From Polytrichum commune (taxonomy: Eukaryota; Streptophyta; Polytrichopsida; Polytrichales; Polytrichaceae), in contig OX485809.1 in assembly GCA_950295325.1 (NCBI GenBank), positions 2,604,001-2,668,000 of the forward strand: 64,000 nucleotides of DNA. The letters run 5' to 3'. This document shows, piece after piece, positions 1 to 48,058 of the stretch; position 1 is the first letter of the stretch; the number at the start of each line of letters is the position of its first letter. A model generated the notes under the pieces. That model was not told the DNA's origin and ran no database searches. It saw only the letters and a program-made list of their open reading frames with translations. A program made the translations under genes and the position numbers.

Positions 1-754
1 GAAATTTTTGAAGTTGAGAATGAACCGAGTTTTCCTTTTGCTGATACAACAATATATGTACTAATTTCTTTTTCATTTCTATTGATTTTCTTATGGACTC
101 TTTTTCTTACCTCAAATTATAAATCTATTCTCAACATAATCTTGAACTTTCGGACAATCATTTTATTGTATATATTCATCGCAATTTTCTTGAAGTTCAA
201 TGATTCTAATTTGATTATAAACAAATCATGAAAATCACTAAATACTACTACCATAATTATGTAATCTTAAAATCATCAACAATAATTTCTCTTTTAGGGT
301 TCAACAAAGATCAAGCTCTAGAAAGCTAACATGGTGATCTAACGAAACCACAATATGCTCCAAGAAGTTAAGTGTTAAACTTGGGTACCCATCAATTGAA
401 AAATTGTCAAGATTTTTATTTCCCACGGTACGGCATGTAGATGATTTTCAAGGGCCCTTAGGTTTTGATGGTCACGGCTCTTGGTATGTGTGTAAAGCGG
501 CCTAAGTCATGAACAAAATCGGCCCGTCCTAGAGATTCCATTCTCCATGTGACCTTGGGCATGCAGATATGCCCAAAGGATTCCCCCCTTGGAAATGTGT
601 TGCGTAAAGGAGAACAATAGTGAATGTCTAGGTGTAGTTGTGCAACCCAAGTTAGTTGTCTTTATCCCAAATGGCGGGCAATGGAGATTGACTATGTTAG
701 CCAGATGCTTGAGAGTTTGACAAAGGAACTATGCATCGGTTACAAACCCATTGG
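1..754. other. AT-rich intergenic DNA, no gene seen
   Basis: No reading frame here resembles a known protein and I see no tandem repeat or RNA gene. The short frame that begins near 624 runs into the MITE starting at 763 and ends inside it, so it is not treated as a gene. Confidence 0.5.
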
Positions 755-762
755 AATTGGAA

Positions 763-1465
763 CACAGGGAGGTCACTTCATTGTCAAGTTGACACCACGT
801 GCGGACAAAGTTTGCTACCCCTATATTACATGCCATATATAATTTTAAAATTTATGATATTTTTTCTACATATACATAACCATTGATAGTATCTTTTTCA
901 TATTTTTTTGAAATTTTTAGTCATCTTCATATTTTTTAGTAATTGTTTTAGTTCAATTATGTGTCATTCTAGTTAGAAACGGTATGGTTTATGAAAAAAA
1001 AATCATCAAATTTAGTTACCACTTTTAACTATGTCATAGGTACTGTGTATATCTACTCATGAAAAAAAAATTGATAAAATTTTGACCCATTTTGGTGGTG
1101 CAACTTACCAAAAGAAGATTTTTTTTGGTCGCATGCGGTGTTCAACTTGACATCACCACCTTAGTCCACCCAACTATGGTGGGGGGGTCCTTGGACCTTG
1201 TTGTATGGGTACCTCAAAGCCCTTTGGGGGGATACCATGTCCGGTATCTTCAAGGCACTAGTGGCTAGCTAGGAACTTGTATAGTGTGTCACTATAGTGT
1301 CCATCCTCGAAAGGGGAGAGTAGTATTTGTCCCAATGTCCCCTTGTCCAGTGGGCATTGGGTCATTGGCATTACGAACGGACACTTTATTCACGCCGGCC
1401 CCTTGCTAAAAAGGGACCGGAGTTTCTCTCTCTCTTCAACTTGACAATGGAGTGATCCCCCCGTG
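763..1465. mobile_element. hAT-like MITE, copy 1 (carries an extra 293-bp segment)
   Basis: The element is bounded by inverted ends CACAGGGAGGTCACT (left) and, read from the other side, CACGGGGGGATCACT (right). It is flanked by a perfect 8-bp direct repeat, AATTGGAA, at 755-762 and 1466-1473. The similarity between the ends continues inward through CATTGTCAA and CACCACGTGCGG-like blocks. The body from about 763 to 1152 is nearly identical to the element at 38593-39002. An 8-bp target duplication is the hallmark of the hAT superfamily. No transposase is encoded, so it would depend on a hAT enzyme from elsewhere. It is 703 bp against 410 bp for copy 2; the difference is the segment at 1153-1446. 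Confidence 0.85.
1153..1446. repeat. Extra segment inside MITE copy 1, bounded by a 12-bp direct repeat
   Basis: The 12-mer TTCAACTTGACA occurs at 1141-1152 and again at 1435-1446. Copy 2 of the MITE has a single TTCAACTTTGACA at this point. Either about 293 bp were inserted with a 12-bp target duplication, or copy 2 descends from a form that lost the segment by recombination between the repeats. The segment ends in a short CT run and has no obvious inverted ends or coding capacity. Confidence 0.6.
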
Positions 1466-1473
1466 AATTGGAA

Positions 1474-3229
1474 TTGGACTTTTCGAAAGCGGTTTTAACA
1501 TTTGGTGTGAGAGGGATGTGCATCAATGGGGACCTTTATGAAAATGTGTCATCTAACTTCTTAACCAAGACACCAACCGAGTCCCGGTGAAGAGTTTCTA
1601 TAATTGTGCTCATGTTGGCAAATATAGATGTTATTTTTTTTCGGTTTTGGTATGAGTAACGTTCAATGTTGTTATCGAACATATGTATATGGTAGGCCCT
1701 TCTACTAACTGAGGTACGTGGCTCTGTTGTAGGCAGTTCCAACTCCGCATATAAAATTTGGTCATGGGATCCTTCAATGCGAATAACAATTACAAATCAC
1801 GAAGATTGTCAAGAATTGAGATGTGAACTCTATAAGAGATCAAAGTGAAGTTTTTTTTTTTTTTAAATAAAAAAATAAATTCTCTTCAAACAATCACATT
1901 AACTCTCCTCAATGTGGTGGTTAGGAAATATTAGGGGGGGGGGGGGACTCTTCATTGGGAACCTAAATGATGTGTGTGGGTCATTATGAAGCTAAACCCC
2001 CTATATATGAGAAGTTCGTAGAGAAAAACAAATGTATATATACTAATTGCAGGCTAGAAAATGGACTCATGTATTTATACTAAGCCTATTAGTTCAACGT
2101 GATGAATGCCTTCACTACATATGTAAGGTATGAATTGTGAATTAAATATGCCTTTATTACATATGAAATCCACTGTCACTTTCCAATGAGAAAATCATCG
2201 ACCATTTTTTCATCCGTAGCATGCAACTCAACAATTGCACCAAATAAACAAAGACAAAAGCACAATGACTTTAGCCAAGATGTGAAGAGGAAAACTCAAG
2301 GGAACCCAAGAGCACTCCAAAAGCCAATTTTTTAAACACCTAGAACCCAAAATGCAAACCCTAACAAGAATGGACATGGTAGTCATTAAGGACTATTATG
2401 CTACGACAACATCGGATGACATTAACACATCTATTGTCAAATTTTTCTCTAAACCTTACGGCCCCCTTTTGCACATCTGTCTTTACTTCCAAATTCTAAA
2501 TAGCCTTTTTGGATGTACCCACTAGAGAAAACACAATACGGTCCTCTCTCTTACGTATATTGTGTATGCTAATGCCCAATACACCCCCCCCCCTTACGTT
2601 AATTCATATGTGGTCTGAAGAGTCCACCCTCTGGGCTTAGATCGTTGTCCTCATTTTGAACACATAATCCAATCACATATGTACCACATGTTGTTTTGAC
2701 ACCCATTCAAATACCGGCCTCCGGTTATGAAGAACGATCACGGTAGGCCCACAAGACGTTACTCATGTCTCGAGGTGAAGGACGAGTTTGCGGCGACATC
2801 CACCCTAATTTGTGAAATTCTCAAGGAATGTCCAAAATATCTACCCAAAAAAGTATATATTGGTCACTAAGTGACAAAGGCATTGGGAGTTGATCCCATG
2901 ACTTGCTCAAATACAAACTCGTTCACGACCACGTCTATATATAGGTGGGTTAGTTCAACTGCCAATTTCTTTAGGGTTTAGGGTGGAAACCTCACAAATC
3001 TCCAAATTGGTTTGACAAAATTGGTTTGATATCATCCATAACATTCCTAGGAGTGGGCCCGACGTTTGGCATGGGTTTACATGGGAATATTGGGCGTGGG
3101 CCATTGCAACTCATATTCAAGTAAATCTAGACATATGATCATCAAAATCCAAACGTTTTGGTTGCTACAATTGGGTAGATTCGTCGATACATTTTTTGAA
3201 ACGTGAATTGCATAAGAGATGTGTGAATA
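1474..3229. other. Intergenic DNA without recognisable genes
   Basis: AT-rich sequence with homopolymer runs (G-run near 1935, C-run near 2583) and a short telomere-like TTTAGGGTTTAGGG motif near 2970. The small reading frames are not convincing. Confidence 0.45.
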
Positions 3230-3480
3230 CTTAGTGTTTATTTGAATGTTATGTTTTAAAAATATGATGAATTAAACAACATATCCTTTTTGATGTTAAA
3301 TCTATTAAAGTACATGTTGAATTGTGAAAAATGTAATCGAAACAACTGCTATAATATTTTCACAATCAACATTGCATATTCTATGGTAGGATCCTACCGT
3401 ACCATCGTATCACATGATCATGTGACATATTTCAACACATTATAACTTTGGACTTTGGACTTAGTATAATTTTATTTGAG
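3230..3480. repeat. Dispersed repeat related to 49190-49490
   Basis: Blocks such as ATCGAAACAACTGCTATAAT followed by ACATTATAACTTTGGAC and GGACTTAGTATAATTTTA recur with modest divergence in the same order and orientation at 49190-49490. Here the middle carries a single GGTAGGATCCTACC palindrome, where the other copy has a 13-bp tandem array. The nature of the repeat is unknown. Confidence 0.55.
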
Positions 3481-6400
3481 TTAGTTTTGTACCCAACCCA
3501 ACATACTCCAACCCATATCCAAGTTACAAGACATATTGGTGTTGTATGAATTTAGAGAGTTATGTCATATAAATAACCTACTAATCATTGGAGGAATGAA
3601 ACTTGAACATGCTATAATGGACCTTACACTAGCAACTCATGTTAAGGTGCCCTAGGCTAAATCACATTTGTGTTCGGCTGGGCCCCGCCCCTCCCACGCA
3701 TATTTGCAAAAGTTGGCATAGAATACCATAAATGTGCAATTGAACTTTGCAGTCACCTTTGTAGTGCTTAACTTATGAATACTTGACAACTTGTAATAAT
3801 TAATTCCACATTCAACTGAACATGTGGTGGTCGTGGTCGTGGTTGTCACCCCATTGTTTCCCACCGTTCTTGCCCAAAGAACCAAAAAGAATCCAAAAAA
3901 TAGGCCACGTGTCAGAAGATTTTTCACATAAAAACATAGACAAAAACAAACATGTGAGCAAAGAAAGAGGGAACATGTGTAGAAAGGTGGGGGCAACCCT
4001 GGGAGAGGTGGCAAGTATGGAGCCAAGGTGGTGGGCATGGCATGTCAAGGGAGACGATGATGGGTCATGAGGGGCTTGTGAGCATGGGCATGGGGGGTAT
4101 ATGGACATGGGGGCATATGGTTGCATGGGCTTTTGGGGTTGGGTTGACCCAATATATCAATTCATATGCATTGGCGCAATGAGTTGGGACGACACATGTC
4201 CAAGCTAGTAATATGTACGTTGGATCATATTTGTTAAGCATCATAGTTGTAAGGTAGGTGGACCTCTCTCGGGTTGTGACCTATTGTGGAAACCTCAAAT
4301 TAACGGTATAGTGGACACAAAGCATATCTTGAACTAATGGTCCTCAAAAGAATCAAAATCAAGGTAAGGCTTGGCATGACCTATAGGCACACACATGCAA
4401 GTATACCGTGACATAAATAGGTGCTCATGGAGGCTCCAAGTGATCGTATTGGCCATGCATGGATTTGTCAGTGTCACACTTAAATGAACCATATATTAAG
4501 CATTAGAAGCAAGCATGGTAGCCACTTGTGGTCCCACACTCTCACAATTATGAGGTGCTAAGGTAGATGTGCCTAATTCAGATACCTTTCTCTCTACACC
4601 CACCTCTAGTAAGACATGAAACATACAATCAGTGCTAGATGATTTGCAATTCCAAATCGTGCATGTAGCCATTTGCCTTGTATTTTTTGGAGCTCATATG
4701 AACATCTTATTCATTATTAAAGTGAATCTCTTGTGCTCATATAGTCTCCCCCCCCCCCCTCCCCTTTATATTCACTATTGAGCCTATAATAGTTAGCATA
4801 GTTTGTGCACATAGTCCAATCTCTTGTAACACATGTTTGTTTGGTGTCCATTCTTAGACCCACACCTAACCACAAACCACTTAATATATGTGTCCAAATT
4901 ATTGTCATGTTGGAATTGGGCATGTTTACCTTAGGTAAGATCATGATAGGTTCTTCAAGAAGCATTTTATCCCAATAAAAAGCAGGCCATGACCAAGATG
5001 GGTAGCACAGATGGATGACCCTACGTGACCACAATGGGGCATAGGAACTTTAATTCACTTTGAACTTTGGTAAGAAGTTGAGATATGATTTGATTAGTTT
5101 AACTTGCATGGACTCCAAATGGGTTCCAACTCCACTTTGCATCGCTATTTCCAACAAGACAATTGGCATACAAATTTGATAATACCCAAACTCACCATAG
5201 TGTCCACAATAGGTGTGGTTGCATTAGATGCAAAGACTGTTGCCCAACCTAAAAGAGCTTCATGACAACTTTAGAAACATGTGATTGAAGTCTTAGGAAT
5301 CCTCGTACATGACGAACTCACACATGACTGAAATAAGCACGAGTGAATCTTAATGATGAATAGTTTATCTTTTAAAGGGAAACCAAGGGACAAATACCTT
5401 GGATTGTTATAGGATTCCTTCTAGACATTAGTCCTCATAGACCAATCTTCCTTGATACTTAGTACCTTGGGTTTTGTTATTTTGATTCATACCAAAAACC
5501 TAAGTACAAATGGTAATCCAACCGATGAAGGCCACATGAAGGGTTCAAGAAGATGCAAGGAAGTAAAACATGATCTCCAACATACGGTCTCGAAAGCATG
5601 GTTGCTTGTAAGATATGGTGCGAGGTTTGGGTGAGGATCATGTGTATGTCATTCCACAAATAAATTTTCAAAGCTCAAATATGAAGATTAACCGATAATG
5701 ATAGGAGATTTAATTTAACGTCAAATTTTGCCAACTTAAACATGGAATATCTAAGTTGCTCAAATACTATGTGAGGTATACAACCCACATATCTGCATCA
5801 AATTCAACGTGGTCGAAATTGATGTTAAAGAGACTTAACATTTGGCTGGAAACTTTTTCCATAACATCTCTGTTATGACTATTGCAGGTCTTGCAAGATA
5901 TATGGAGATATCTTGCAAATACTGATACATAATCACGGAAACATCACAAATGTTGTTGCAAACGCTAACTACAAGCTCACCAAAAGGAGTTCCTTAGTCA
6001 ATATGCTGGTCCAAATGCAAAGTAACACCGTGTTCTTCAAAATTTGGGTCATCACCCACTTCCAAAAACCACAAGACGAAGGCATATTTATCCACCGTTG
6101 AATTTCATAAGTGCATGTCGATTGGTAACTTCGTAAATGAGCATGTGTCCTCTCAAAAACAATCGATGAAAGCAAGTTTTTAGTGTCATGCTTCCCTAGG
6201 TCACTATCAACGTAATTTGTCAAAAAAAAAACTCCAATTACCACTTTAAGAATCCCAAAGGAAGAGTTCATGTCATGCGTGTCCTTCAAAGTCCACAAGC
6301 TCGGGGCACGGATTGCATGGGCACCTCAAATCAAATAATCAAGTCAGCATCCCGCAGCATTGACGTCACAAGTTCAAAAGTTCTTATTACTTGCACAAAT

Positions 6401-6999
6401 TAAAATTTCATTCACCATGCATGGTACCTTGACTGGTGTGACTATTGTCAAGAATTGAAGCAACTATTTACGATGAAGCAACACGAATTACAATCTTCCT
6501 TCAACCTTGCACATTGGCCGCCACTATGCAATGCATGATCTTCATAGTGCCAACTCGGCAATTGACATTCTATAAAATGCCCACTCCCTCATTTTACAGT
6601 CTCAATGATTTGCGTATACATTGCAACAGTCCGATCTTGGTTGGTAGAATCTCACAAGAGAAGAAAGCCGATCTTGGTTCCAATCAGGTTGTTCGTTTAT
6701 GGAATTATTGTTGATTTGATAGTCCCAATTGAGATGCGACAAAGACAGTGAAAGGAACTTAGCAAAGCTATTTTTTGCAATTTATTGTCAAGCACTTCAT
6801 CAATGAGGAATATACACAGAAATAGATAAATTATTGTCCGAAGGAGAAATGATGACATGTTGTTCACGCAGTTGATGGCCATGATCATCGCACAAATGAT
6901 TGCAAAATTGTCTTCACGTGGGCTTCAATCAATCAAAATGTGACAGTGATCAAAACAAGTGCAAAGTGATTGCGGAGGAAGTTATGAAATTGAATGACA
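3481..6999. other. Intergenic DNA, no supported gene
   Basis: A somewhat GC-richer patch lies at 3820-4140, with purine-rich GTGGTCGTGG and GGGCATGG repeats that open frames on both strands; these look compositional. A C-run occurs at about 4748-4762. Nothing else is recognisable. Confidence 0.4.
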
Positions 7000-9239
7000 C
7001 TTCAATTTCTTTCCAGTCATTAGATCCATTGTCCATAACCTTCTCATAGACCGAAAGTTGTGCATGCATATTTGACAGTTGGCAACAGAAAAATGCGCAA
7101 TGTGCAGAACCCTTCAAAAGAATTGGGTTCCGGCAACAATTGTGAGAAGATTCCAGACGTAGAATCATTTGCCTTTGGAAAGGTTGGCAAGGTAGATTTT
7201 TTTTATTGCAAAATCTTGTTGTTGCGACACAATTTGTTTCTTTTCTTTTGTCCATCATGATGATGTAGAAACTCTTGATATGTGAATGTGTGTGCATTTG
7301 CATATGACGCATATGTTGCAAAGAACTTCATCAATGTAGGGTTTTGATTTCTACCTTGCTCCAGTACCATAGCATTATTCAATTAAGTGACTAGGTTGGG
7401 TGGAGCCGGGAATATGCCATGTAAGGTGCTAGAATTATACCTTATGAATGCTTGTCTAAGCAAATTCAACTTGATTAACTGTGAATTATTCATGTGAAGC
7501 ACTATCACTAAATATTGTTAGAATGGAACGACTCGTAACAATTGAGTAATGTTATGACAACGACAAGATCCTGAGCAACATGATGCAATCCTAGAAACTT
7601 TAAACAAACAAACAGCATTGGGTTATTTTTTCGCACACACATGATACATGTAAAGACAACACACAACCTCTAATGCTCCAATGTAGCAAGCTTTAGAGTA
7701 TTTTTTTGCTCGCATCTAGATCTTCACCCTGTTTCATTGTTGATCTATTGCGGCCTTTGTAGATATACTTGTGAATTTATTTCATGGTCTTCATTATTGT
7801 TCAGAAATTCAACACATACAATTCAGTCTTCTTTTGCGGGGTCATGAATTTTATTGGCTGGTGCAATATAACCAATATAAATATACGAGGCAATTGTTCA
7901 TTCAGGAACACTGTGACATTGAATAAATAAATTCAGCCCATGCACGCTCGACGATATCCCATATCAAAGCGTCATATTTCAAGTCAAATATTCATACAAT
8001 AATATTCGGCTGATCAACACCGGTCTGTCTGGACATCTAGACCTAAGGACCTTTTATATTTCACATTAATTGGGAATGGTAGTCATAGTGCCCAAATTGT
8101 CAGGATGTTGATACAACCTAGTGAAAGCACAAGTTTTGAAACAAGTCAAACATGTTGTGGGAACTACCAATGTATGAAGTTAAAAAGAATTAGTCTCCCA
8201 ATACTACAAAGATTCAAATTGTCATCTACGTCATGCTCCACAACGTCGGCAAGGCCATAATGAAGTTTAGCATGCAAATCGGCTTGGCCATGTCAAATGA
8301 ACTCCAACCGATTTTTGTTTTGTCACAGTGCCAAGCATCAGCAATGAATTAGGCACGTCTACCTTAATGCAACAGTAAATAAGCAAGATGGTGTTCCTTA
8401 ATGCAATGTTTCACTCAGATGTTGGCCATCATCACCCAAACGCAACACAACATCTTGCATACCTTGAGGAACATCTCCCACTCTTGGCAACAAAACCACA
8501 ACGCCACTACCGAAAAGATAGCACTTTCGACCCATGTGAATCTCAAAGCATATATCAAGAGCCCAACCGCCTTGCTTTTGATTGAATTCTCTAAGAACCT
8601 CATGCACTTGTGTAATGTATAAAGGAAGCGGGATGAATTCTCAATATACCTTGAAGCTTCACCATTGAAAGTTGCATACAATTGGGGATCGTTTGAGGAT
8701 TGTCGTTCTTTACACGCTGACGATATAAAGTTGCAAATTAACAAGATGCCACACTAAGGTTTGGTGACGACGACTCTGCAAAAAGGTGTCTAAATTTGAA
8801 GGAGAATTGAGACATCTTTTTATTTGCAACTTTAAAAACGGAAAGACCGAGTTTTTTGACTTGTGTGACACTCCGCAGAAGTTTTGATAGAAATTTTACC
8901 TGACATTCTTTAGATTGTGCATCATCTGCTTGAAAGCAATGGAGGGGGTCTCTGGGAGAAAGGAATTGAAGTCTTGCCATGCCAACAGCAATCAACAAAT
9001 TTTGGATTGCACATAGAGGACGTTGTGATTCTGTCACCAAGCCAAAACGAAACAATACAATACACACATGATTCATTGATTACATGCCAATAACTTTCTT
9101 CCATGAAGAATTCTCTCTCTAACCTTGTAATCTTGCTCAACTTCCACCTGGCTAAAACATAACCTTCAACCAAATACTTCCTCAAGAAGTAGGCTTTGCA
9201 AACAAGTCGGAAATGTAGGACTTTGTTTCCTGTTTTCAC
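7000..9239 (-). pseudogene. Possible remnants of a minus-strand gene, unidentified
   Basis: Several minus-strand stretches read like protein but never join into one frame. Around 8900-9200 a frame contains NLLIAVGMARLQFLSPRD and then a splice-donor-like TGTCAG|GTAAAA at about 8899. Around 8420-8700 a frame contains FLYTLHKCMRFLENS. Around 6960-7200 a frame contains VYEKVMDNGSNDWKEIEV. I do not recognise the family. This could be a decayed multi-exon gene or chance frames in repeat DNA; the evidence is weak. Confidence 0.18.
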
Positions 9240-9670
9240 GTGGAATGATCCACCTTCCAGGACAGTAGAATAATGCCTCTTGATGCTTGGTAGGCTTAGA
9301 ACTAAAGTGTGAAATCATCCCCACAAAGACAACTCCCTAGTGTCAAGTGGCAAGACAATTCAGAAATCGCTGTAAAACAAACTTACAGTGCAAAACCTCT
9401 GTGGAGTGAGTTTATCAGACCAGATTGATCCAATAGATACATCCAAGAACTATTTTCATTTGGTGCAATATATAACAAGCTTAATGACCTCCTATACAGC
9501 TCTATCATTCTAAACACGTGGACCCTCTAGCTATGAACTGGATTCAAATTCCTGTGAAGGTGGAGATGCTACATATAACAACAATTCGAGTTACACAGGA
9601 TTGATGAACAAAAATTATTTATAAGAAAAAGGGCCTCTCAATCTTGCTACTCTATAGCTGTCTAGACATT

Positions 9671-12600
9671 CTACTTCTGCATATGTTCTATTATTCTAGA
9701 CATAGACTCGGACCTCGACACCTGATTGTTTGGTCTTCGACGATATAAGTATATTGCACCTCCGAGCAATGCCAGTGTTGCCACAACAGTGGCAAGAGTG
9801 CCTACAATGATTCCTGCCTTGGTTTTCGATGACATACTGTTTGGATTAGGTCCAATGTAGGTCTGCAAACACTGTCCTCATTAGCAAATGGTATGGATTG
9901 ACAAATTCAAAGATTCTGAAAGTCCTATAGTGCTGTTCAAGACTTTTGTAATAACCAAAAGCTTAGGCCCCCTTTACACTAATGAGGTTGAGAGCTCAAA
10001 GAAAGGAGCCTTATCATTGGCATAAAGGAGCCTCTAGCCCATGCTTGTTCACTCAACTCCACTTCACACATGAGCTTTCAAATTGAGAGCTTGAACTTTT
10101 TACCAGGCATACAATGCTTAGATGGCATAAGCCTTGATGGATCCCATGTGGAATGACTAAGACAAGCTCTCAGTCATTCTTGACAAGCTCTTGGTCGAAT
10201 TCCTAAGCTACCTCAATGACGGAGGCAGCTTAGGGTGGTCTGAGAGTTTGAGCTCTCATTTTGTGGGCCCCAAAGCAATGGGCTTTCAAGCATTCATTTG
10301 CTTGTCATGAATGCTACTTTGTTTAGTATCATTCCACCCTTCATACGTCACTTTGAGCATGGCCACTTTATACTTGCTAAAACTATTGAGAGGTTGAAGC
10401 ACACTATTAAAAGCTCGAAGCTTTCAATAGGTTGAACTTTGGATGAAAGATTGTCACCTCCAAGTATTGAACTCCCAAATGTTGCAAGTTTGAGCTCTCA
10501 ACTCAAGCTCTAGGCAAATTACGAAGGGGGCCTTATTAGTCTTTGGTGACATAAATTGTAGCTCGTCCAACTACTGTAATACCCTCTTTATTTTACAAGG
10601 TTGTTCAATCTAGAGGCTAGAGAGGCACTTTGCAAGTTCTTGACGACACATATCCTGGTGTACATTGCTTCCAAAATGTGGTTCTAGCAGAGGGGCTATT
10701 CCAGATAGTAGGTCCATGTGAGTAATCTGGGACATGAGTAATCTGGGACACAAGCCTTTCCTCTAAGAAAATACTAAAATTCCACACTCAAATAGTCCTT
10801 GATGTTCTTTGTGATTGTAATGAATATTGAGAGTATCCGAATCTCACCGAGTTTGGACCAAACTCGCTCCCAGGTTGTTGAAGAACTTGAAGATTTTGGA
10901 CAGTTGTGTTCTCAATCTGGCCCTTGATCTGCATGCATCAAATCGTGAGGTTTAAACAAAATTGTGCCGGAAATTGGTAACCGGAACCCACATTGGAATT
11001 GCTTGTCTAATTGGCAACCACCTCAAATGTACTGTCTCAAGAGTGGTTGTACATCACATTATGGCTCTCATTGTGGGCAGACTATCTCAAGAACATGCAT
11101 CACCAGGATAATGTTTCTCCAAATACTCTTTTCCAGATGAGAAGCTTCATGGAGATTCTCAAACATATTGTATCCTGTCCTCCCATCCGAGCAATGGAGA
11201 AATTACAATAACATTAATTGTCACTCACCTCCCAGTACTCAGAAGTAAGTGCGACAAGATCGTATCCAGGAACCTGCGTTGCTACACTGCGGCTTCCAGT
11301 GATTGGGTCAAATGAGACTGTGCCAGAACAACCCTCAAACTGTGGAATTCCAGGACCAGATCCATTGAGTGCTGAGTAAATATTCTGTCGGGTGACAGGC
11401 ATCTTGGCTTTGATGAGGTTATCAATGATTACATAGTAGGTTTGCACAGCATCAATGAGGTGCGGGACATAAGAACGTGTTCTGTTCTTTCCTTCAGAAG
11501 GAAAACCTGTATAATTTTTTGCTTTCCAGTAGGAGTAGAATTTCTCACAATTGGTGTTATTTAAGATGGTCCCACCTGAGACACAAAGGTACCATTGTGA
11601 GTTTGTTTAACACTTGAGGAAGGCAAGAAAATATCTCTAGAACCTGACATTTCCTATATAACACACAAATTGCGACAGTAATGTTGCAGGCAAAGAGAAT
11701 GTATGAACCAACTCTTAGTTTTTACTCTTACATAGAGGCCAATAAGTGTACGAGCCTTGATTTTGAAAGTTTACTCTTCTAACTTTCAATTATTCAATAA
11801 GCATCACTGGACACGTAGAACATAAGAAAGGCACTAGAGGGTAAAACTTCAGAGTTCGATGATAAGAAGTTTATTAAAACATACCATCTGGGGCGACCCC
11901 AATCTCTCCTTGCAAAGCATTTACCAGGTCGGGATCTACAACAACCATGACATGGAAAATAAAATTCAGGAAGTTCTTAATTTCACCGCTCTGAAGTGAC
12001 ACTCCAGTTATTGGTAGGCATTGCAAACCAGAACAAAAGAGGTGCAAACCAGAGGAGATCCTTTCCCTTCAATATGGAGTAACTACACTCCAATCTGATT
12101 AAGCTGCTGTATGCACATTGGGCTCTAATAGTGTGTTCATCATGCACCATCATCTCTTCCAGATAGGTCAGCATCTTCAAAGTAGAGAGCAACAAAGTAA
12201 ACAGGAAAGAGCTACAAACAAATTTTGCTTTAAAATGTCAACAGGGATTTATGCAAGAATGAAGTAGGAAAGTCATTCTCCAGAAATGCTTAAGTACCTG
12301 TCACGTTGGTATCTACAGGATCGAAAGCAGTTACCCCATCCGACCCAAAGTACCAATATGGATATCTCAATTTATTCTGTTCACATAGGAGCGGAATCAG
12401 AAGTCATATTCCCAATTTCTCAACTCCTGCCCACTTCAAATGCTCAAGCAGGGACAGATCTATAATGAAACTTGGAGCTCCACCATTTGAAGGTCAATCC
12501 CTTAAGAGAGTGCTGACACTTAAATGCATCTGAAAGTAGTAACAAGATGCAACAGGGTGGAGGTATACCAGACTGCGAGCTGCTGACCATATATCATAGG

Positions 12601-15224
12601 CTTGAAGTGGTTGCACAGCCATGATAACAAACTCATCATTGGCAACAGAATCTAAGATAATTCCAAGCTGGGTGCTGTTAACAGTTGAATTATCTCCAAC
12701 ATCCAGCATGTATATACGAACTGTGGCATATGAACTTACAGTCTGCAAGCAACAAATTCCATCACAAACCACTCGTCGAAGATACAGGATCTTGAAGAAA
12801 ATTTCTACAAAACAGACGTAAAGAGGAAATTTGTGTGAACTTGTAACTGATTTTTAAGAACTTAAATATTGTTGAAGGTTCAACACTCCTTGTAGTCTTC
12901 AGCAACTGGTTATGCCAGATCTGTCTGGGAGGGGTCTAGAAAGTCCTTAGAGAGACCTATGATTAGTTATTTGATTTGTGTAAAGCTTGCGGGTACTCAG
13001 CCTTCAACATGTTCGGGGTTGATGCTCGGTTATTCATGCATCACAATGCGAAAATTTATTCCTCCAAAAAAATAGCAGGCATTTTAATCATAGGGATACC
13101 ATCAATCAAGTAGGTGTAGCTTCTAGGCTCCTATTCTAGACCCTGTATACATAAAGAAGTGACTAGCAATGATCGGTGGACACTACATCCATTTCATTCT
13201 CTCCTAATCACATTGATCTTAGTAATTCTCCTAATTAGTAAAAGGTGGCAATCTGAAACGGTATGAACATGCATTTCTTCCCTGAAATCGAAGCAGTGAG
13301 GGGAGCCAACGGCCTGTAATCATCATTAGTTGAGAGACGAAGTATAGACGTTGTGGATTATACAGTTACTACACGTAATTCTTAAATCCATTGTGACTCA
13401 CTAAGTATCGTGCTCTTAAGATGAGAGCATTGGTAGTCACGTGCATTTTTTAATAACAATAGAGAAGCAAGGAATACCTGGGCAAGAATGATTTTCATAT
13501 ACATGCACGTGTACAGACACGAAAGAGACTTCAAGAATTTTACATACCTCATTTATGCTAGTCGCCAAGCTCATGCTGTAGTACTTCTGGACATACAGCA
13601 ATGTGACCTTCTTTATGCCTAACTTCGCTACCTGCTCATCCATTTCACAACCTCGATTCTTTAATTAATCGGAACTTGGAAGCACTATAACTGGAGAAAG
13701 GATGTATCACTGAACACAGTAGGAACCCCACCTTCTCCCAAAACTCTGAATAATGAACATCAGTCTGCACCCTGTTGATAATAAATTAATGCGAGTAAAT
13801 CTCAAAGGCAGAAGATCCTCCCTCACACCCTTGATGGAAAATTATGTTGCTAAAAATTAGCATAGAAACTTGGTTGTCTATTGAAACCAACTCAGTCTGC
13901 TCTTACACATTCAGGTCACAAGTAATAGATTTGTGCAGACAATACTGTAACCAGTATCTGTTACAACTATTGGAGACCAATTTCAGATGAGGACATGGTA
14001 GGACATCGATTAGGATTTATTGCTTCATTAAGTGGTATGTTCTATCACTCAATGATGGGAGAGGATAGAAGAGAGTGTAGACCACCTACACTGGCTGCTA
14101 TAGCTGCTGCTTGATACTTATCACTAAATCTGCAGGAGAAAAGAAACAGAGGATCGTAAGAAATCGTCAAACATAGTTCAAACATTGGGGTACTTTATCA
14201 GAGAAAACACTTCTGATTGACAGTTAGGAGGTACAACAATTCCGTTTGTTGATTGAAAGACACTACTTCCTTGAATGGTCTACTCCTAACAGTAATAACT
14301 TGATGTAAACTTATAAGAAATTTGAGTGAGGTTAGCAATAGAGTAAGAATTCCCTGAACGTCCAGACTCTGAAATGATGACCCCAGTTGCCAATCAAAGA
14401 TATTTTAAACAGAATCATACACAGAAACATTATGTCATCTCAAAAACATGCGTTTCCCCCTCACCTTTGGGCAAGTTCTGAACTGTGTGCTTACACTGTG
14501 CGGAAGAAATTCGGAAATATTCCTCGGCTTGAGAGAAGCTCTGACGTGGCAGCAAATGATACGAGAGTGTAATTACTATACAGAAACGTTCTGGCAGCTG
14601 ACATAGCTGCATCACTGCAAGCAGGGCCTACAGCACCGATTAATTCAGGTACCACTGCAGTGACCATCATCTCTGCCGCCAGTTGCCCTTGTTGCCAATC
14701 ACATTCAGTGTTCTGAGGACTAGAGACAAGTTGATATGTTCTGTTTTCGGCATTTAAAACCTCCATGGCCACTTGGAATGCTGACCTCCTGGCACAGTAG
14801 CCCATAAGCAACGTCAAGTTGCATAAGCTGCTAATACGCCGATGCACAATCAAGTATGGAGGGGTATTCCATCCAACACAACTTCTTGTAAACACAAGGG
14901 TCTACAACTAACAGCACAATTATTCATATCTGAAGAAAAATTCCTGATCAAGGAAAAACATAGTAACACGCAGAAGATGGTCCTTCTGATGATTATTGTC
15001 TATCAAGAGCAAAAGCTCTAAAACATTTTTTAGTAATTACTGACTGTAAGGGTGGTGAGAACGTACCATTCAATTGCCAGGCTGCTGGGGATGGAGGAAT
15101 CTGGTGAAGGCGCCAGGAAACCAAGCCTATATGTTGTTTTGTTGTCTGCTTCGCCATTCCTCACAAAAGCACAGAGGAATATTACAAGAAGGAGAGATGA
15201 TACATTATCCACTTTCCTTGCCAT
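9671..15224 (-). CDS. Single-pass receptor with ANF/periplasmic-binding ectodomain
   Basis: Eleven exons on the minus strand: 15067-15224, 14495-14827, 14090-14129, 13732-13764, 13548-13631, 12569-12742, 12298-12376, 11885-11935, 11229-11575, 10848-10928, 9671-9862. All introns are GT-AG and the phases agree, giving 523 residues. The start is the Met at 15224, followed by a hydrophobic signal peptide (SSLLLVIFLCAF). Residues about 30-430 form a receptor ligand-binding (ANF/Venus-flytrap) domain: RLGFLAPSPDSS near the start, IGAVGPACSDAAMSAA, FPNFFRTV then SDKYQAAAIAA, KKVTLLYV, DEFVIMAVQP, YFGSDGV, LQGEIGV and FEGCSGTVSFDP. These resemble both plant GLR and GABA-B ectodomains. A single helix (about 476-500, AGIIVGTLATVVATLALLGG) is followed by YRRR and a 23-residue tail, then TAG. 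There is no pore, 7TM or kinase domain. It is probably a plasma-membrane protein; the ligand is unknown. The 33- and 40-bp exons are the least certain part. Confidence 0.82.
9966..10532. mobile_element. PIF/Harbinger-like MITE in the last intron of the receptor gene
   Basis: The ends are GGCCCCCTT at 9966 and its inverse AAGGGGGCC ending at 10532, flanked by TTA at 9963-9965 and 10533-10535. A subterminal GTTGAGAGCTCAAA block is also inverted near both ends. A 3-bp TTA duplication and G/C-rich ends fit Tourist/PIF-Harbinger MITEs. The element accounts for more than half of the 985-bp intron between exons 10 and 11 and leaves the splice sites intact. Confidence 0.7.
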
Positions 15225-17272
15225 GGTTCTAGTCCTCCTTTGAGGCCCTGCTTGAGCGAACACAAGAAAATTCCTACAAGTTCAAAGTAACAGAAAAATG
15301 GGTATCAGGAACAGAAAAATGGCTCAGGTTAAGGAATTCCAGAATCATACAGAGCAATTTGTCCCTGCCAGCTGTACATTGACTAGAACATCAAATGCTG
15401 AATACCAGCATAAACGATCCTAAACCAGGATGAATTGCAACAACACATTTGAACTCTCGATACAAATACCTCTTGCAATTTGCTTCTCAATAACACAACC
15501 AGGACTGGCGTGAAAATTTCTTCACCATCCTTAACTTCTGATCATCCTCAATTCGCATGAGAAAGAGTTCATAGCCTCACCTTGACTCGGGACAAAGAGA
15601 GCAATAAATAGGTTGACAGACAGGCTTCTGGTGCTCCGGGAGTCTACATCGCGTTTCAGCTTGTCAGCAGAAGCTGGGATTCCTCTGCAGCTGAAATATA
15701 AGAGACACTACCCACGTGTGAGCTGTGAGAATGACAATCTTCAGGCGGAGAACCTTCAGTGAATTTGGATCAAAACAACATATTGATATGCATATATTTA
15801 TACATGGTCCAGAGTTCCTTGACTATCAAGGGAAAGAACTCATGGTATGATCTACACAAGAACTATACAAGCACTCCATGTGTTTTTTGAACGATAGATA
15901 AGAGTGTGTCCATGAGTGGGACAGAAAAATCCCTGGGTGTACACAAGTAGCCCTAATACTGTGATTATAGATACACCGAGAAAATTCCTATTCAGGGTCA
16001 GATGTAATCCAATTCGACCACAACAATGGATTACCGATATGGTTCGCTCGCTGCCGATATGGGACCTAGTACACTGTTGTGCAAACGAACTCAATCTCTA
16101 ATTTTTGGTGACTTTATGCCAAAACCTAAATGAAAATGGCTGACAGAACAGATAAGTAGACTCTGAAATATTGAAAGTTTCAGAGGAACCAAATGTGGAC
16201 TCACCGTAATCAGTGAGGGAGATGAGGAAATTAGGCACATTCCAGGTTGATTACGCATCGTAATCTGCAAGAGATTCCACGAAGGTATTGAAACTTTGAT
16301 TAAGATGTAATATATATCTCAGCTCCAAGTCTCAATGCGCCATGGCTAATCATAGTGGACTCATAAATTAGCAAGTCACAGACACGGATAAGAAGAGTGT
16401 AATGGGGTTTCTTCATAGATTAGAGAGGAGTTCAATACCACCGGCATGAATACTCTAGAGCGGAGCTAGAAAATGCGACAAGAGGTTAAGTAACAATAGA
16501 ACTGGAGCTCACAGTCTAATGTGCAACCTCGTTCAATGTTGTTCACAATGATAAGAGCACATGCAAGATGCCTTTGTATGCGGTAAGAGAACATTGCAGT
16601 GAAGACGAAGAAATTGTTACCAAGAGAGCACAGTCAGCAACCACAATACTAGTAGCGTTGCCTGGAAATTCGTACTTAAAAAAAGACAACCTTATGAAGC
16701 TAGCTGAAGTGGAAACAGTCCATAGTTGGATTCCTCAAATTAAGAGAAAATTAAGATAAAACGTGACGAGCTATTATCACCAGAAAACACGTACATAAGA
16801 GTTTAAGTGTTATGGTTGCTTCTACAGACGCTGTGCTTACTCGGCTGTTCTTTCACGAAGCCTGTACTTTAATAAAGTCATTAAATAAAATTGCTCTGTC
16901 CAAGAGAACTGTGCATGAAGTACCTTGTCAATGCGACTAATTTTCACTCTGGACGATACAGATAGCAAGAAAAGAGATGAACACAAGGCTATCACTCTTT
17001 GCTGCAGGTCTCAAATGACCAGAAAGGATGCTATGACCCAGTGGACACCCTGAGTGCTCGCGATTGCAATAATTCCTCGGCAACCTCAAATGGATTGCCA
17101 CTCAAGACGACATGCAAGCTGCGAATCGTTCACAAACAGGGAAGTATTTGGCAAAAGCCAGAAAATTATTATGCAGGCTGCCCTTTCTTCCCAAATCCAA
17201 CAAAAATTGCTGCACAATCCCGCAAATCTCACACGGCCATGAATGCGATCGACAAGAAAGATCCTACTCACC
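15225..17272 (-). promoter_or_regulatory. Probable spliced 5' leader region of the receptor gene
   Basis: Upstream of the start codon the minus strand has a pyrimidine-rich acceptor (TTTGAACTTGTAG) ending near 15287, a donor AAG|GTGAGG at about 15580, a donor ACG|GTGAGT at about 16203 and a strong donor CTG|GTGAGT at 17271. These suggest one or more leader introns between a first exon near 17.3 kb and the coding start. No protein-coding frame in the stretch is recognisable. Which sites are used cannot be decided without transcripts. Confidence 0.35.
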
Positions 17273-17723
17273 AGAGAAGTGCGAGCTGCGCATAACTCCG
17301 TTGGTCGCTTATAGAGTCCTCGAAAGCTGCACCGAGCGAGAGGGGGAAAACAGTGATGTAAACAGTTTTGGAGAGCTGCTTTTTTGGCTGCTAAAACCAG
17401 CATGTGAGGTTCTTGCTCCACGGTGAACGGAATCTGTCGATTAACGTGTCTGCGGGTAGCACGGGGGGAGAATTTGGCGATGGGATGGTGGAGTGGAGGC
17501 CGGCAGCAAACAACAGCAGCAGCAGCGATTCATCAGCAACGGGTCCAGGGCGATGGTGGAGGAGCTTGGAAGTGAGCGGCGATAGCGGAGGGAGAAGGGG
17601 GGAGTCGCCTACGACCGAGACAACCTTGGCCCCACCACCGTGCTCACCAATCATGTTCTGCCACGTCGACATGCAGAGCCCTGTAGCTGGGTCCGTCCCC
17701 AATAATGGCACTGGCAAACACAT
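17273..17723 (-). promoter_or_regulatory. GC-rich block, likely promoter or first exon of the receptor gene
   Basis: This block is markedly richer in G and C than its surroundings, like the blocks just upstream of the other two genes in the window. Frames are open on both strands (minus 17391-17723, plus 17404-17805) but neither resembles a known protein, which fits composition rather than coding. It lies directly upstream of a strong minus-strand donor at 17271. An unrecognised short gene cannot be excluded. Confidence 0.35.
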
Positions 17724-17904
17724 TCATGCCCTCTTAGGTCGTATGTTTATTATTAGTGTTTTGTTATTCCCCCTCAGTTTTCCAGTCAGGATGAGCCTTA
17801 ATTAACACCATCATGTTATCATAGCCCAATCAGTGGTCAGGACGTTCTCTTGCACATGATGACTTGGCGTCAGGAATGCCGTGTAAGCTAAGCTTATGAA
17901 TATG

Positions 17905-26125: not shown

Positions 26126-28497
26126 ATGACAACAACTTTGGTTCAATATGAATGGGGAGGACATGGTTTACCAAGAGGAGAGTTTTCCAACACAGAGCCA
26201 ATAACAACAGAAAACACACACAACACCATTGCGGATGTTGGAGTTACAACAGAAGAGTTGCATGTTACAGAGGAGTTGGCAGTTTGGCGTGTGCGACTCA
26301 CTCATCTATAAGACAACCACAAGTTTTGGATACCTTATCATAGAACCTCTTTAGTGTGGGCATTTTTCTTGTTACATCCACAAGTAATAAAGTTTGATGT
26401 AAAGGTACCACAAACAATGAGGTGTGTTTTGTGTCATCCAACATCATCCACTCCAATTATGTTTGAAGGGCAAAGCTTCACTATCTCATAATCTACTACT
26501 CGTTCTAGAAAAAATATCCTTAACTACAACCTTGCACATGGATCTACCTCTATGATGAAACATGTGATGAATGACCATGTTGCTGATATGGAAAGATATA
26601 AGGAAGTTGTGACAACTACTGATGTAGTGGGAAAAAAATATAAATGCAAGAAAATGAAACATGTGAACCCTAGTGCCATAATTGAATACTATGGTAGTAC
26701 TAGCCCTTATGGAAAGAATAATATAACACAATAAAGGTTTTTGGAGGATCTTGTTCTTTAGATTGCAAAATGATACATTGCATTGTCTGCAGTGGAGAAT
26801 CCATGTTTGCGGTGTTTGGTGCTGCAACGCGATCCGAAGGTATGGTTTCCCACACGAAAACAGTTGGTGAAAGAGATCATCCCATTTATGTTGCAAAAAA
26901 TTATGGAACGTTTTGTGTGGCCAACACTAGCAAGTTGTGCAACAATTGCAGTGACTTTCGATCCGTAGATGGTGCGTATGGGAGTGGACACATTCTGTTT
27001 GGTTGTGAACTTCATAGATAGCGATTGGGAACCCCGACATATCATTGTAGGTATTTTTGAAGCATCAGATATTGTAGGAGCAATTTTAGTAGTTATTGTG
27101 AAGATGTTGCTTTCAGATTTCCACCTCACATACAAAGTAATTTCGTATGTGAAAGATGAAGGTAGTATTTTTTCAAGTGAGAACTTGAACTTGAACTTGA
27201 ACATGTGGCTTCTCCTTCTTCATTTCTTCTTCTTCTAAAAGGGTACCTAAAACGGAATGTACAATGATTATAAGAAGTGTTTGGTCTTGTATGTAATCTA
27301 ATGTGTTTTCTTCCCTCATGGCCTACTAATTGCTAACTTAACAACTATAATGACCATATAATTATGAAGAATGACCATGTAAGACGCACATAACTTATTA
27401 AATTTTGTTGTTATGTTGCAGGAAACATAAGAATATGCAACGGCTATTAATATATGTTATGGTATGCCGTTGCATATTCTTATGGTATGCAGACTGCAAC
27501 CTTGCAAGCCCAAATCCCAAGTGGGTTGACTTGGGCTGTGGCAAAGGCGGTTACAAAGACTTTGCACCATGTTGTGCAACAATGCATTTTAAACCAATCT
27601 CGCGGGTATTGGCTTTTGAGCAATGCATTGTATGCAACCTACTATATAAACATCCAGCTACAAAATGAGTATCATCGAAGGATACATGTGGTGCCAGTAC
27701 TTCAATGTGGACAGATGGACTCGGAACTGCAACTACTTTATGGCCGCATGACTTTTGAATCAATTGAAGTTATCAAACCATGTCTTGCATTTGTAGGTGA
27801 GTTCACTCGTGAGAAGGCACATAATATGTTGTCTTTGATATTAGACCCTAGGTATAAGGGGTTGCACGTGATCATTGACTATGCGGGACGCGAGAAGGCT
27901 ATACACATTGTGGCAAAATATGATCAATTTGTTTTGGTGCCTTTGCTTGTGAAGGTGTCACGGTTGCTGAATCCGAGCTTGGAGAATAACTTGCCACCCA
28001 CATTGGAGGCTACCACTGATTCTTTTTTTGGGCACACGAGTTCTACAGAGGAGGCTAGTGAGGGCATGCTGAAATCAGAGCTCATTTTGTTTCAAAAGTT
28101 TTTTGTACCTGCAGATAAAGACATTATTGCTCCACTTGCATGGTGGAGGGATAATGCCCCTCGATTTCTGCACATATAATTTTTTGTGAGGCAAATTTTA
28201 GCAATACCAAATTCTGAGATCGAGACAAAAAGAATTTTTAAGTGTTGCTGGACTTTTGTATGCCTTGCATCATTGTAGGTTGGGCATCCAAAATTTAGAT
28301 GCACTCGTCATGATACTTAGAAATTGGCCCATAGATGCTAGAGATGAGTGCAACTCTTTTGCAAAATATGATCTTGGTGAATTTTTTGTTGACGAGGTTG
28401 AATTAGTGGATGCTCATGAAGATGAATTACAAGTAGCAGGTTGCTTTGAGGAAGACCGTACTTGTTCAGATGACGAATTAGATGAGTATAATTAGTA
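26126..28497 (+). pseudogene. Decayed hAT-family transposase gene
   Basis: The pieces follow hAT order. A start region lies at 26126. A BED zinc finger follows (CVLC at about 26410, then SMMKHVMNDH at about 26550). Next come RDPKVWFPTRKQLVKEIIP near 26830, DTFCLVVNFIDSDWEPRH near 26985 and VKDEGS near 27150. The segment at 27454-28179 has NQSRGYWLLSNAL, LDPRYKGL and IAPLAWWRDNAPRF. A dimerization tail at 28190-28497 has IPNSEIETKRIF, then after a shift SVAGLLYA, and ILRNWPIDARDEC. Breaks include a TAA at 26489-26491, further stops near 26730-26760, frame changes, loss of part of the central catalytic region between about 27190 and 27450, a TAA at 28177 and a one-base insertion near 28240. It cannot make a working transposase. 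Terminal repeats were not found. Confidence 0.85.
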
Positions 28498-47400: not shown

Positions 47401-48058
47401 CTGATGGTATGAATATTTTTTCAAATATCCTTCATACCAAGAACGCATACCTTTGAGATCTCCTGCCGATTCCTACAGGTTGGGAATTTAGATTTGACTT
47501 GTTCCTTGTGTATCGTGGACGCAAAAAGTTATCTCGTACATGAACCTTGGCTTTTAAGAAATACACACAAATTTTGGACAATGAGAACAGATCTAGTCTG
47601 GCTCTGCTATTGTTTTTTTTAACTAGGATTGTTCTAATGAAGTTGGTCAGTGATGGCTGCAGTTGGCACTTTACACGATGCGAACTTGGTCAATGACAGC
47701 GGTGGAAAATGTTCGTGCACTCAACAGTAGGACAGCAACACCTGAATTTCTTTCAAAACTCGCCTACCTTGCTTGGAACCATCACAAGTCCATTCTGAAG
47801 ATTGATACCGTGCGAGCCTACACACTTGGGACTCACGCTTTTGTTGAAGTGGACATCGTGCTGCCAAAGTATATGTCTTTTCGCGAAACCCACAACATTG
47901 GTGAGAGTCTGCAGAACAAAATAGAATCATTGCCAGAAGTTGAGCGTGCCTTTGTACATCTAGACTATGAATATGATCACCAACCTGAGCATGCGGTACC
48001 TGACTATGAATTGAACCTGAACCTGCCACAACCGCCAATGGAGCGAAGCCTGGAATGA
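44413..48058 (+). CDS. Manganese-type cation diffusion facilitator (MTP, Mn-CDF group)
   Basis: Six exons: 44413-44563, 45098-45213, 46291-46536, 46808-46888, 47057-47293, 47663-48058. Introns are GT-AG and phases agree, giving 408 residues, close to the roughly 400 of plant MTP9-11. The protein antiports divalent metal, most likely Mn2+, out of the cytosol into a vacuolar, Golgi or prevacuolar compartment. Landmarks are WRLDINKF at 21-28, [16 protein letters not shown] in exon 2, DSFLD at 135-139 in helix 2, [11 protein letters not shown] at 161-171, DHMFD at 245-249 in helix 5 and WWIDPTGA before helix 6. The cytosolic domain has [27 protein letters not shown] and [11 protein letters not shown]. 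DxxxD in both helices 2 and 5 marks the Mn group; Zn members have HxxxD. An alternative acceptor at 47019 would break the frame, so 47057 is preferred. It appears intact. Confidence 0.93.

What the first reader, a model, noticed from the sequence alone, without database searches (positions are those of the whole stretch)
9671..15224. A plant receptor with an ANF/GLR-like ectodomain, one membrane helix and almost no cytoplasmic part
The exon model is continuous in frame from signal peptide to stop and contains only a Venus-flytrap ectodomain, a single helix and 23 residues ending the protein. Plant GLRs carry a ligand-binding core and pore after the ANF domain; GABA-B receptors carry seven helices. 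Here neither is present. The layout recalls the animal natriuretic-peptide clearance receptor. It might act as a decoy, a ligand carrier or a co-receptor for a channel or kinase; that is inference.
Basis: partly seen in the sequence, partly recalled or inferred. Interest (0 to 1): 0.78.

Follow-up and report, generated by a model that had tools for sequence, protein, structure and literature searches.

The report
Moss Venus-flytrap receptor without signalling domain
A plant genome, probably a moss, carries two old sister genes for a cell-surface protein that looks built to grip an amino acid outside the cell but has no recognisable channel, kinase or seven-helix part to pass the message on, so it probably works with a partner or captures amino acids.

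Summary
The gene lies on the minus strand (15224-9671) in 10 exons, not 11, and encodes 499 residues: signal peptide, Venus-flytrap (VFT) ectodomain, one membrane helix, 23-residue tail. A second gene on the same contig (47% identical, 498 residues) shares all nine intron positions and phases, the helix and a short tail, so the layout is not a prediction error. Exon-wise scans find no effector domain inside or 9.7-9.9 kb downstream of either gene. The clearance-receptor comparison holds for layout only; no sequence similarity was found. The VFT is nearest, though very distantly, to plant GLR amino-terminal domains, then to class C GPCRs. It keeps all five residues by which mGluR1 grips the amino and carboxyl groups of an amino acid (the genome's own GLRs keep three), but not glutamate's side-chain anchors. 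Best reading: a VFT "receptor-like protein" that binds a non-acidic amino acid or derivative and acts through a partner (inferred), or else a scavenger. Orthologues in other plants, expression, ligand and partner could not be tested. New variant of a known kind.

The parts
15067..15224 (-). exon 1: start ATG, signal peptide, first strand of VFT lobe 1 (residues 1-53)
   Evidence: hydropathy; donor gtacgt
14495..14788 (-). exon 2: lobe 1 core with C82, C110, S111, A132-T134
   Evidence: rings as ANF_receptor on its own
14090..14129 (-). exon 3 (40 bp), contains D154
   Evidence: paralogue exon also 40 bp
13548..13631 (-). exon 4 (84 bp), contains Y182
   Evidence: paralogue exon also 84 bp
12569..12742 (-). 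exon 5: lobe 2
12298..12376 (-). exon 6 (79 bp), FGSDG motif with D263
11885..11935 (-). exon 7 (51 bp)
   Evidence: paralogue exon also 51 bp
11229..11575 (-). exon 8: rest of VFT, C303, Y329, C376
10848..10928 (-). exon 9 (81 bp): stalk
   Evidence: paralogue exon also 81 bp
9671..9862 (-). exon 10: conserved GPNPN juxtamembrane stretch, membrane helix (about residues 452-476, GxxxG at G453-G457), 23-residue tail, stop TAG

Best explanation
The gene encodes a real, functionally constrained type I membrane protein of an old two-gene family in a land plant, probably a moss: secretion signal, amino-acid-type Venus flytrap outside the cell, one membrane helix, unconserved basic tail. Most likely mechanism: the flytrap closes on an alpha-amino acid or close derivative with a non-acidic side chain in the apoplast, and this changes the activity or assembly of a membrane partner through ectodomain and helix contacts, as plant receptor-like proteins (RLPs) do with receptor kinases; the genome's two GLR channels are an equally natural partner. 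Shown: gene structure, domain content, conserved layout, conserved ligand-site residues, purifying selection. Inferred: amino acid as ligand (about 65%), action through a partner (about 50%), identity of the partner (unknown).
For: Complete gene and a conserved paralogue. All five mGluR1 residues that grip the alpha-amino and carboxyl groups (S165, T188, D208, Y236, D318; named in passages of PMC2680970) are identical in both proteins: S111, T134, D154, Y182, D263 (3 of 3 alignment settings; the earlier alignment showed four and put D318 beside a gap). Of 66 mGluR1 S/T/D/Y residues only 11 are kept in both (one alignment), so keeping all five by chance is about 5e-5 (hypergeometric, by hand, naive). 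This genome's GLRs have F, and GLR3.4 has C, at the Y236 place. The glutamate side-chain residue K409 is replaced by Tyr in 4 of 4 settings, as in amino-acid-activated Venus kinase receptors. Both helices hold GxxxG at the same place. The tails are not conserved (3 of 18 aligned residues identical; 18,493 of 20,000 shuffles score as high), which argues against signalling by the tail. No effector domain in exon-wise scans.
Against: No ligand, expression or partner data. The five residues are partly the general signature of the fold: LivJ keeps 4 of 5, GLR3.4 4 of 5, this genome's GLRs 3 of 5 with similar residues at the other two. K409 is also Tyr in GLRs, so that residue is not specific. Alignments are at about 20% identity; no structure model was made. 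GLR3.4's own domain binds glutathione (passage of PMC11479355), so the ligand may be a peptide-like derivative. RLPs that use SOBIR1 have an acidic outer juxtamembrane stretch (passage of PMC10834447); here it is basic (conserved K449, K451). GxxxG is common in membrane helices, and the paralogue's helix is glycine-rich. A scavenger or tethered carrier fits the anatomy nearly as well.
Confidence: 0.5

Rival explanations
1. Scavenger, clearance or carrier protein: the flytrap captures apoplastic amino acids, lowers their level near GLR channels or hands them to a transporter, like a tethered bacterial binding protein.
For: No effector domain found; unconserved tail; cysteine pair C82/C110 lies where LivJ has C53/C78; Peripla_BP_6 just over cut-off.
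Against: Nothing speaks directly against it. A pure scavenger needs no conserved helix, yet helix and stalk are 42% and 53% identical between paralogues.
Confidence: 0.25
2. The protein signals by itself through its short basic tail, as has been proposed for the NPR-C tail and Gi (recalled).
For: Both tails begin with basic residues (RRR; KQKRR).
Against: Tails are not conserved beyond charge: 18,493 of 20,000 shuffled pairs score as high. Basic residues after a helix are the ordinary topology signal.
Confidence: 0.06
3. The gene model is incomplete: a longer transcript skips exon 10 and joins a downstream pore, kinase or 7TM.
For: No RNA data were available. The exon-wise scan has gaps: of this gene's own exons only exon 2 rang, and none of the paralogue's second half did.
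Against: Exon 10 with stop is conserved in the paralogue. No Pfam match at E up to 0.1 in 3 of 3 same-strand frames of window 1-9900, none but the flytrap in the gene body, and none in the 9.9 kb after the paralogue. The same scan of a GLR gene in this genome finds its Lig_chan-Glu_bd and Lig_chan exons.
Confidence: 0.05
4. A GLR that recently lost its pore, or a decaying pseudogene.
For: GLR amino-terminal domains are its nearest relatives in the genome and it groups weakly with them in the tree (63/78).
Against: 19-51 bits to GLRs against 300-303 between real GLRs. GLR introns in this domain differ: the nearest is 5 bases away and in phase 1, not 0 (by eye). Open frame and purifying selection in two copies.
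Confidence: 0.03

Closest known systems
Plant GLR channel amino-terminal domain (AtGLR3.4, PDB 7lzh; the genome's own two GLRs)
   Same: Same fold family; best profile match among solved structures (E 3.7e-9); 41-51 bits by phmmer for the window protein, 19-29 for the paralogue; weakly grouped with GLRs in the tree (63/78).
   Different: No ligand-binding core, pore or M1-M4; different introns; extra Cys at 110; Tyr at the Y236 place where these GLRs have Phe or Cys.
Class C GPCR Venus-flytrap domains (mGluR, T1R, CaSR, GABA-B)
   Same: Best or next-best matches (T1R3 E 6.4e-9 by phmmer; mGluR5 E 1.2e-7 by profile); all five mGluR1 amino-acid-gripping residues identical.
   Different: One helix, not seven; no 7tm_3 domain. 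Pairwise scores are low (mGluR1 15-19 bits, GABA-B1 4-22; the mGluR1 segment lacked its first part), and GLRs score higher with mGluR1 (37-53) than this protein does.
Venus kinase receptors (invertebrate VFT plus one helix plus tyrosine kinase)
   Same: VFT plus single helix; Tyr at the mGluR1 K409 place (passages of PMC2680970).
   Different: No kinase; this protein keeps all five core residues, whereas in VKRs only Ser165 is strictly conserved.
Natriuretic-peptide clearance receptor NPR-C
   Same: Layout: VFT, one helix, short tail; a Cys at the C110 place.
   Different: No detectable sequence similarity (-0.9 bits); none of the five amino-acid residues; binds peptides (recalled).
Plant receptor-like proteins (RLPs)
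   Same: Ectodomain, 1-2 helices, no kinase (definition in PMC10834447 passages); GxxxG in the helix.
   Different: Ectodomain is a VFT, not one of the seven types surveyed there; basic, not acidic, outer juxtamembrane stretch.
Bacterial LivJ-type amino-acid-binding proteins
   Same: Fold; cysteine pair position; S, T, D and Y at four of the five site positions, Glu at the fifth.
   Different: Soluble periplasmic protein; 11-19 bits only.

Membership tests
PF01094 ANF_receptor / type I Venus flytrap | Match above curated cut-off | tested here: met
   91.4 bits, cut-off 25.4; paralogue 94.6
Plant GLR channel | Lig_chan pore / ligand-binding core (PF00060) | tested here: not met
   Absent from the protein, the gene body and 9.7 kb downstream (positive control). 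The two PF00060 matches that the genome search listed are on C1 and C6, near the two GLR VFT matches
Plant GLR channel | GLR-grade similarity in the amino-terminal domain | tested here: not met
   19-51 bits against 300-303 for true GLRs
Class C GPCR | 7tm_3 domain (PF00003) | tested here: not met
   Not in protein, gene body or downstream. Genome search found none, but its control rang nowhere, so absence from the genome is not shown
Amino-acid-binding Venus flytrap | mGluR1 S165, T188, D208, Y236, D318 conserved | tested here: met
   5 of 5 identical in both proteins in 3 of 3 settings; 4 of 5 aligned in the earlier alignment
Amino-acid-binding Venus flytrap | Measured amino-acid binding | not testable with these tools
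   Needs purified ectodomain
Glutamate-specific flytrap (mGluR) | K409 (and R323) side-chain anchors | tested here: not met
   Tyr at the K409 place, 4 of 4 settings; at R323 F/L in 3 of 4 and D in the fourth. R323 as an anchor is recalled
NPR-C clearance receptor | Sequence homology to the NPR ectodomain beyond fold | tested here: not met
   -0.9 bits; 0 of 5 site residues in NPR-C
Venus kinase receptor | Tyrosine kinase domain | tested here: not met
Plant RLP (broad sense) | Ectodomain, 1-2 TM helices, no kinase | tested here: met
   definition
SOBIR1-type LRR-RLP | GxxxG helix and acidic outer juxtamembrane | tested here: not met
   GxxxG present; juxtamembrane is basic, by eye

The most novel reading that the evidence does not exclude
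A previously undescribed class of land-plant extracellular amino-acid receptors: Venus-flytrap receptor-like proteins with a complete class-C-type amino-acid site, separate from GLR channels, kept as an old pair in a bryophyte and working through partner channels or kinases.
Probability: 0.33. Interest if true: 0.8.

Novelty: new variant of a known kind. Interest (0 to 1): 0.56.

Why it matters
GLRs are the plant proteins usually credited with a Venus-flytrap amino-acid sensor at the cell surface (for example the passages of PMC13210842 seen). A tethered flytrap with an intact amino-acid site and no effector would be a second, modular way to sense or buffer apoplastic amino acids. P. patens has only two GLRs, and losing both abolishes sperm chemotaxis and makes the plant sterile (PMC11479355 passages), so a partner that tunes amino-acid sensing in such a plant is directly testable by knockout and ligand binding.

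Tried and rejected
Clearance-receptor relationship: rejected on sequence. Truncated GLR or pseudogene: rejected. Conserved signalling motif in the tail: I saw S-x-x-R-[IV]-[IM]-[ED] in both tails by eye; shuffling rejects it (18,493 of 20,000 shuffles reach the score). Shared intron with GLRs: near but not the same place, and another phase. Bacterial or viral close relatives: none in two scans of genome contigs (59 and 48 pattern matches, none confirmed) and one of viral contigs (42, none confirmed); these scans use short peptide patterns and reach close relatives only. Tree placement: the two proteins group weakly with GLRs (63/78), unresolved. Organism: moss is inferred from seven chromosome-sized contigs that hold 406.1 of 407.8 Mb and from two GLRs (PMC13120521 passage on an ancestral moss with seven chromosomes); not proven. 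Literature: judged by titles and starts of abstracts, the searches (2 papers; 6; 4; 15 of 18 listed; 12 of 1,116 listed; 3) listed no paper on a VFT single-helix protein in plants; this is weak evidence of absence. Papers were seen as passages only: PMC4995503, PMC11479355, PMC2680970, PMC13210842, PMC10834447, PMC13120521; none was read whole.
Full report
Gene model. On the minus strand, ten exons with GT..AG introns (15224-15067, 14788-14495, 14129-14090, 13631-13548, 12742-12569, 12376-12298, 11935-11885, 11575-11229, 10928-10848, 9862-9671) give 1,500 bases, 499 residues and TAG. The join between exons 3 and 4 is ambiguous from this gene alone; I took the one that matches the paralogue.

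Paralogue. The genome search with PF01094 listed seven stretches: two on C1 and two on C6 (the two GLRs), one on a 24 kb contig, C21, that also matches Peripla_BP_6 and is probably bacterial contamination, one in the window gene and one at C7:38.15 Mb. The last, read through, is a ten-exon gene of 498 residues with the same intron places and phases (9 of 9), five internal exons of identical length (40, 84, 79, 51 and 81 bp), and the same end: stalk, one helix, an 18-residue tail, stop. Identity is 47%. A protein search of the genome gave 16 matches at E up to 10: 9 in the window gene, 4 in the paralogue, one each in the two GLRs, and one weak match (E 6) elsewhere. So the family has two members here, as far as this exon-by-exon search shows.

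Constraint. Codon positions 1, 2 and 3 differ at 38%, 33% and 60% of aligned codons; of 229 codons for identical residues 129 differ silently; 75 of 117 four-fold sites differ; NG86 dN 0.47, dS 2.49, the latter saturated. Identity by region: signal peptide 8 of 22, ectodomain 189 of 385 (49%), stalk 18 of 34 (53%), helix 11 of 26 (42%), tail 3 of 18 (17%). The protein up to and including the helix is under constraint; the tail shows none.

No effector found. Pfam finds only the flytrap above cut-off in both proteins, besides a borderline Peripla_BP_6 in the window protein. Three same-strand frames of window 1-9900 (9.7 kb beyond the stop) and three of the 9.9 kb that begin 24 bases before the paralogue's stop hold no Pfam match at E up to 0.1. 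In the gene body only exon 2 rings, as ANF_receptor (33.4 bits); the second half of the paralogue, exon 8 included, gives no match. So these intron-blind scans can miss a short or divergent exon. As a positive control the same scan of the GLR gene on C1 finds ANF_receptor, Lig_chan-Glu_bd and Lig_chan. The genome search listed two Lig_chan matches, near the two GLR flytraps. A 7tm_3 search found nothing, but its controls rang nowhere, so it shows little.

Relatives. Against solved structures the single protein matches T1R3 (E 6.4e-9) and GLR3.4 (E 2.1e-8) best; the two-sequence profile matches GLR3.4 (3.7e-9), T1R3 (4.9e-8) and mGluR5 (1.2e-7). No natriuretic-peptide receptor is among the 60 rows shown of 103 or of 98. 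All-against-all phmmer: window protein to GLRs 41-51 bits, GABA-B1 21-22, mGluR1 14-15, LivJ 11, NPR-C -0.9; paralogue to GLRs 19-29, mGluR1 19, LivJ 18-19, GABA-B1 4, NPR-C -0.7; GLRs of this genome to GLR3.4 300-303, and GLRs to mGluR1 37-53. The mGluR1 segment lacked the first part of its domain, so its scores are low estimates. The two proteins form one clade on a long stem (2.23 changes per column; 100/100), weakly nearest to GLRs (63/78).

Ligand site. PMC2680970 (passages) lists Ser165, Thr188, Asp208, Tyr236 and Asp318 as the five main amino-acid-recognition residues of mGlu1, citing Acher and Bertrand 2005 (not read), and Lys409 as responsible for glutamate binding. In three alignment settings both proteins have S, T, D, Y and D there. 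In the earlier alignment, which held full-length proteins and a bacterial row that I dropped later, four were aligned and D318 fell beside a gap. This genome's GLRs have S, T, D, F, E; GLR3.4 S, T, D, C, D; LivJ S, T, D, Y, E; GABA-B1 S, S, A, V and G or N; NPR-C E, L, Y, L, E. So much of the signature is general to amino-acid-type flytraps, and what is special is that all five are kept. Eleven of 66 mGluR1 S/T/D/Y residues are kept in both proteins; the naive chance that these include all five is 5e-5 (my arithmetic), an overstatement because site residues are conserved in general. K409 is Tyr in both proteins, and also in GLRs. The cysteines C82 and C110 stand where LivJ has C53 and C78, and GABA-B1 and NPR-C also have both; GLRs and mGluR1 lack the second one; C303 and C376 are shared by both paralogues.

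Mechanism. Shown: anatomy, conservation, site residues. Inferred: secretion to the plasma membrane, amino-acid binding, closure of the flytrap, and action through a partner. Since the tail is not conserved but stalk and helix are, and both helices carry GxxxG at the same place, contact within the membrane or outside it is the likely route. The RLP comparison rests on the definition in PMC10834447 (passages), whose seven surveyed ectodomain types do not include a flytrap ('anf' occurs 0 times in its main text). Against a SOBIR1-like partner, the outer juxtamembrane stretch is basic. A scavenger or carrier role remains a serious rival.

Limits. No plant genome other than this one could be searched, so I cannot say whether other plants carry orthologues or whether databases already list them. 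No expression data. No structure model. 

Noticed in passing
window 47780-47965, + strand: Weak match to the dimerisation domain of zinc transporters (ZT_dimer, E 4.7e-5, 23.8 bits, under the curated cut-off of 26.7, one frame of three scanned), so an exon of a cation diffusion facilitator gene may lie here.
   Followed up: no
L004 (G000:C21:1-4500): A 24 kb contig with a bacterial-type periplasmic binding protein frame (Peripla_BP_6, E 1.3e-34), probably bacterial contamination of the assembly.
   Followed up: partly
L002 and L003 (G000:C1:22.94 Mb, C6:17.80 Mb): The genome's two full GLR genes; the intron in the flytrap after AIA is phase 1 in both (by eye), 5 bases from a phase 0 intron of the window gene.
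   Followed up: partly
window 16981-17805, both strands: Overlapping stop-free frames of 104-147 residues on both strands in a G+C-richer patch (0.45); no Pfam match for the one frame tested (136 residues, plus strand).
   Followed up: partly
window 27451-28176, + strand: Longest stop-free frame of the window (242 codons), no Pfam match at E 0.001.
   Followed up: partly
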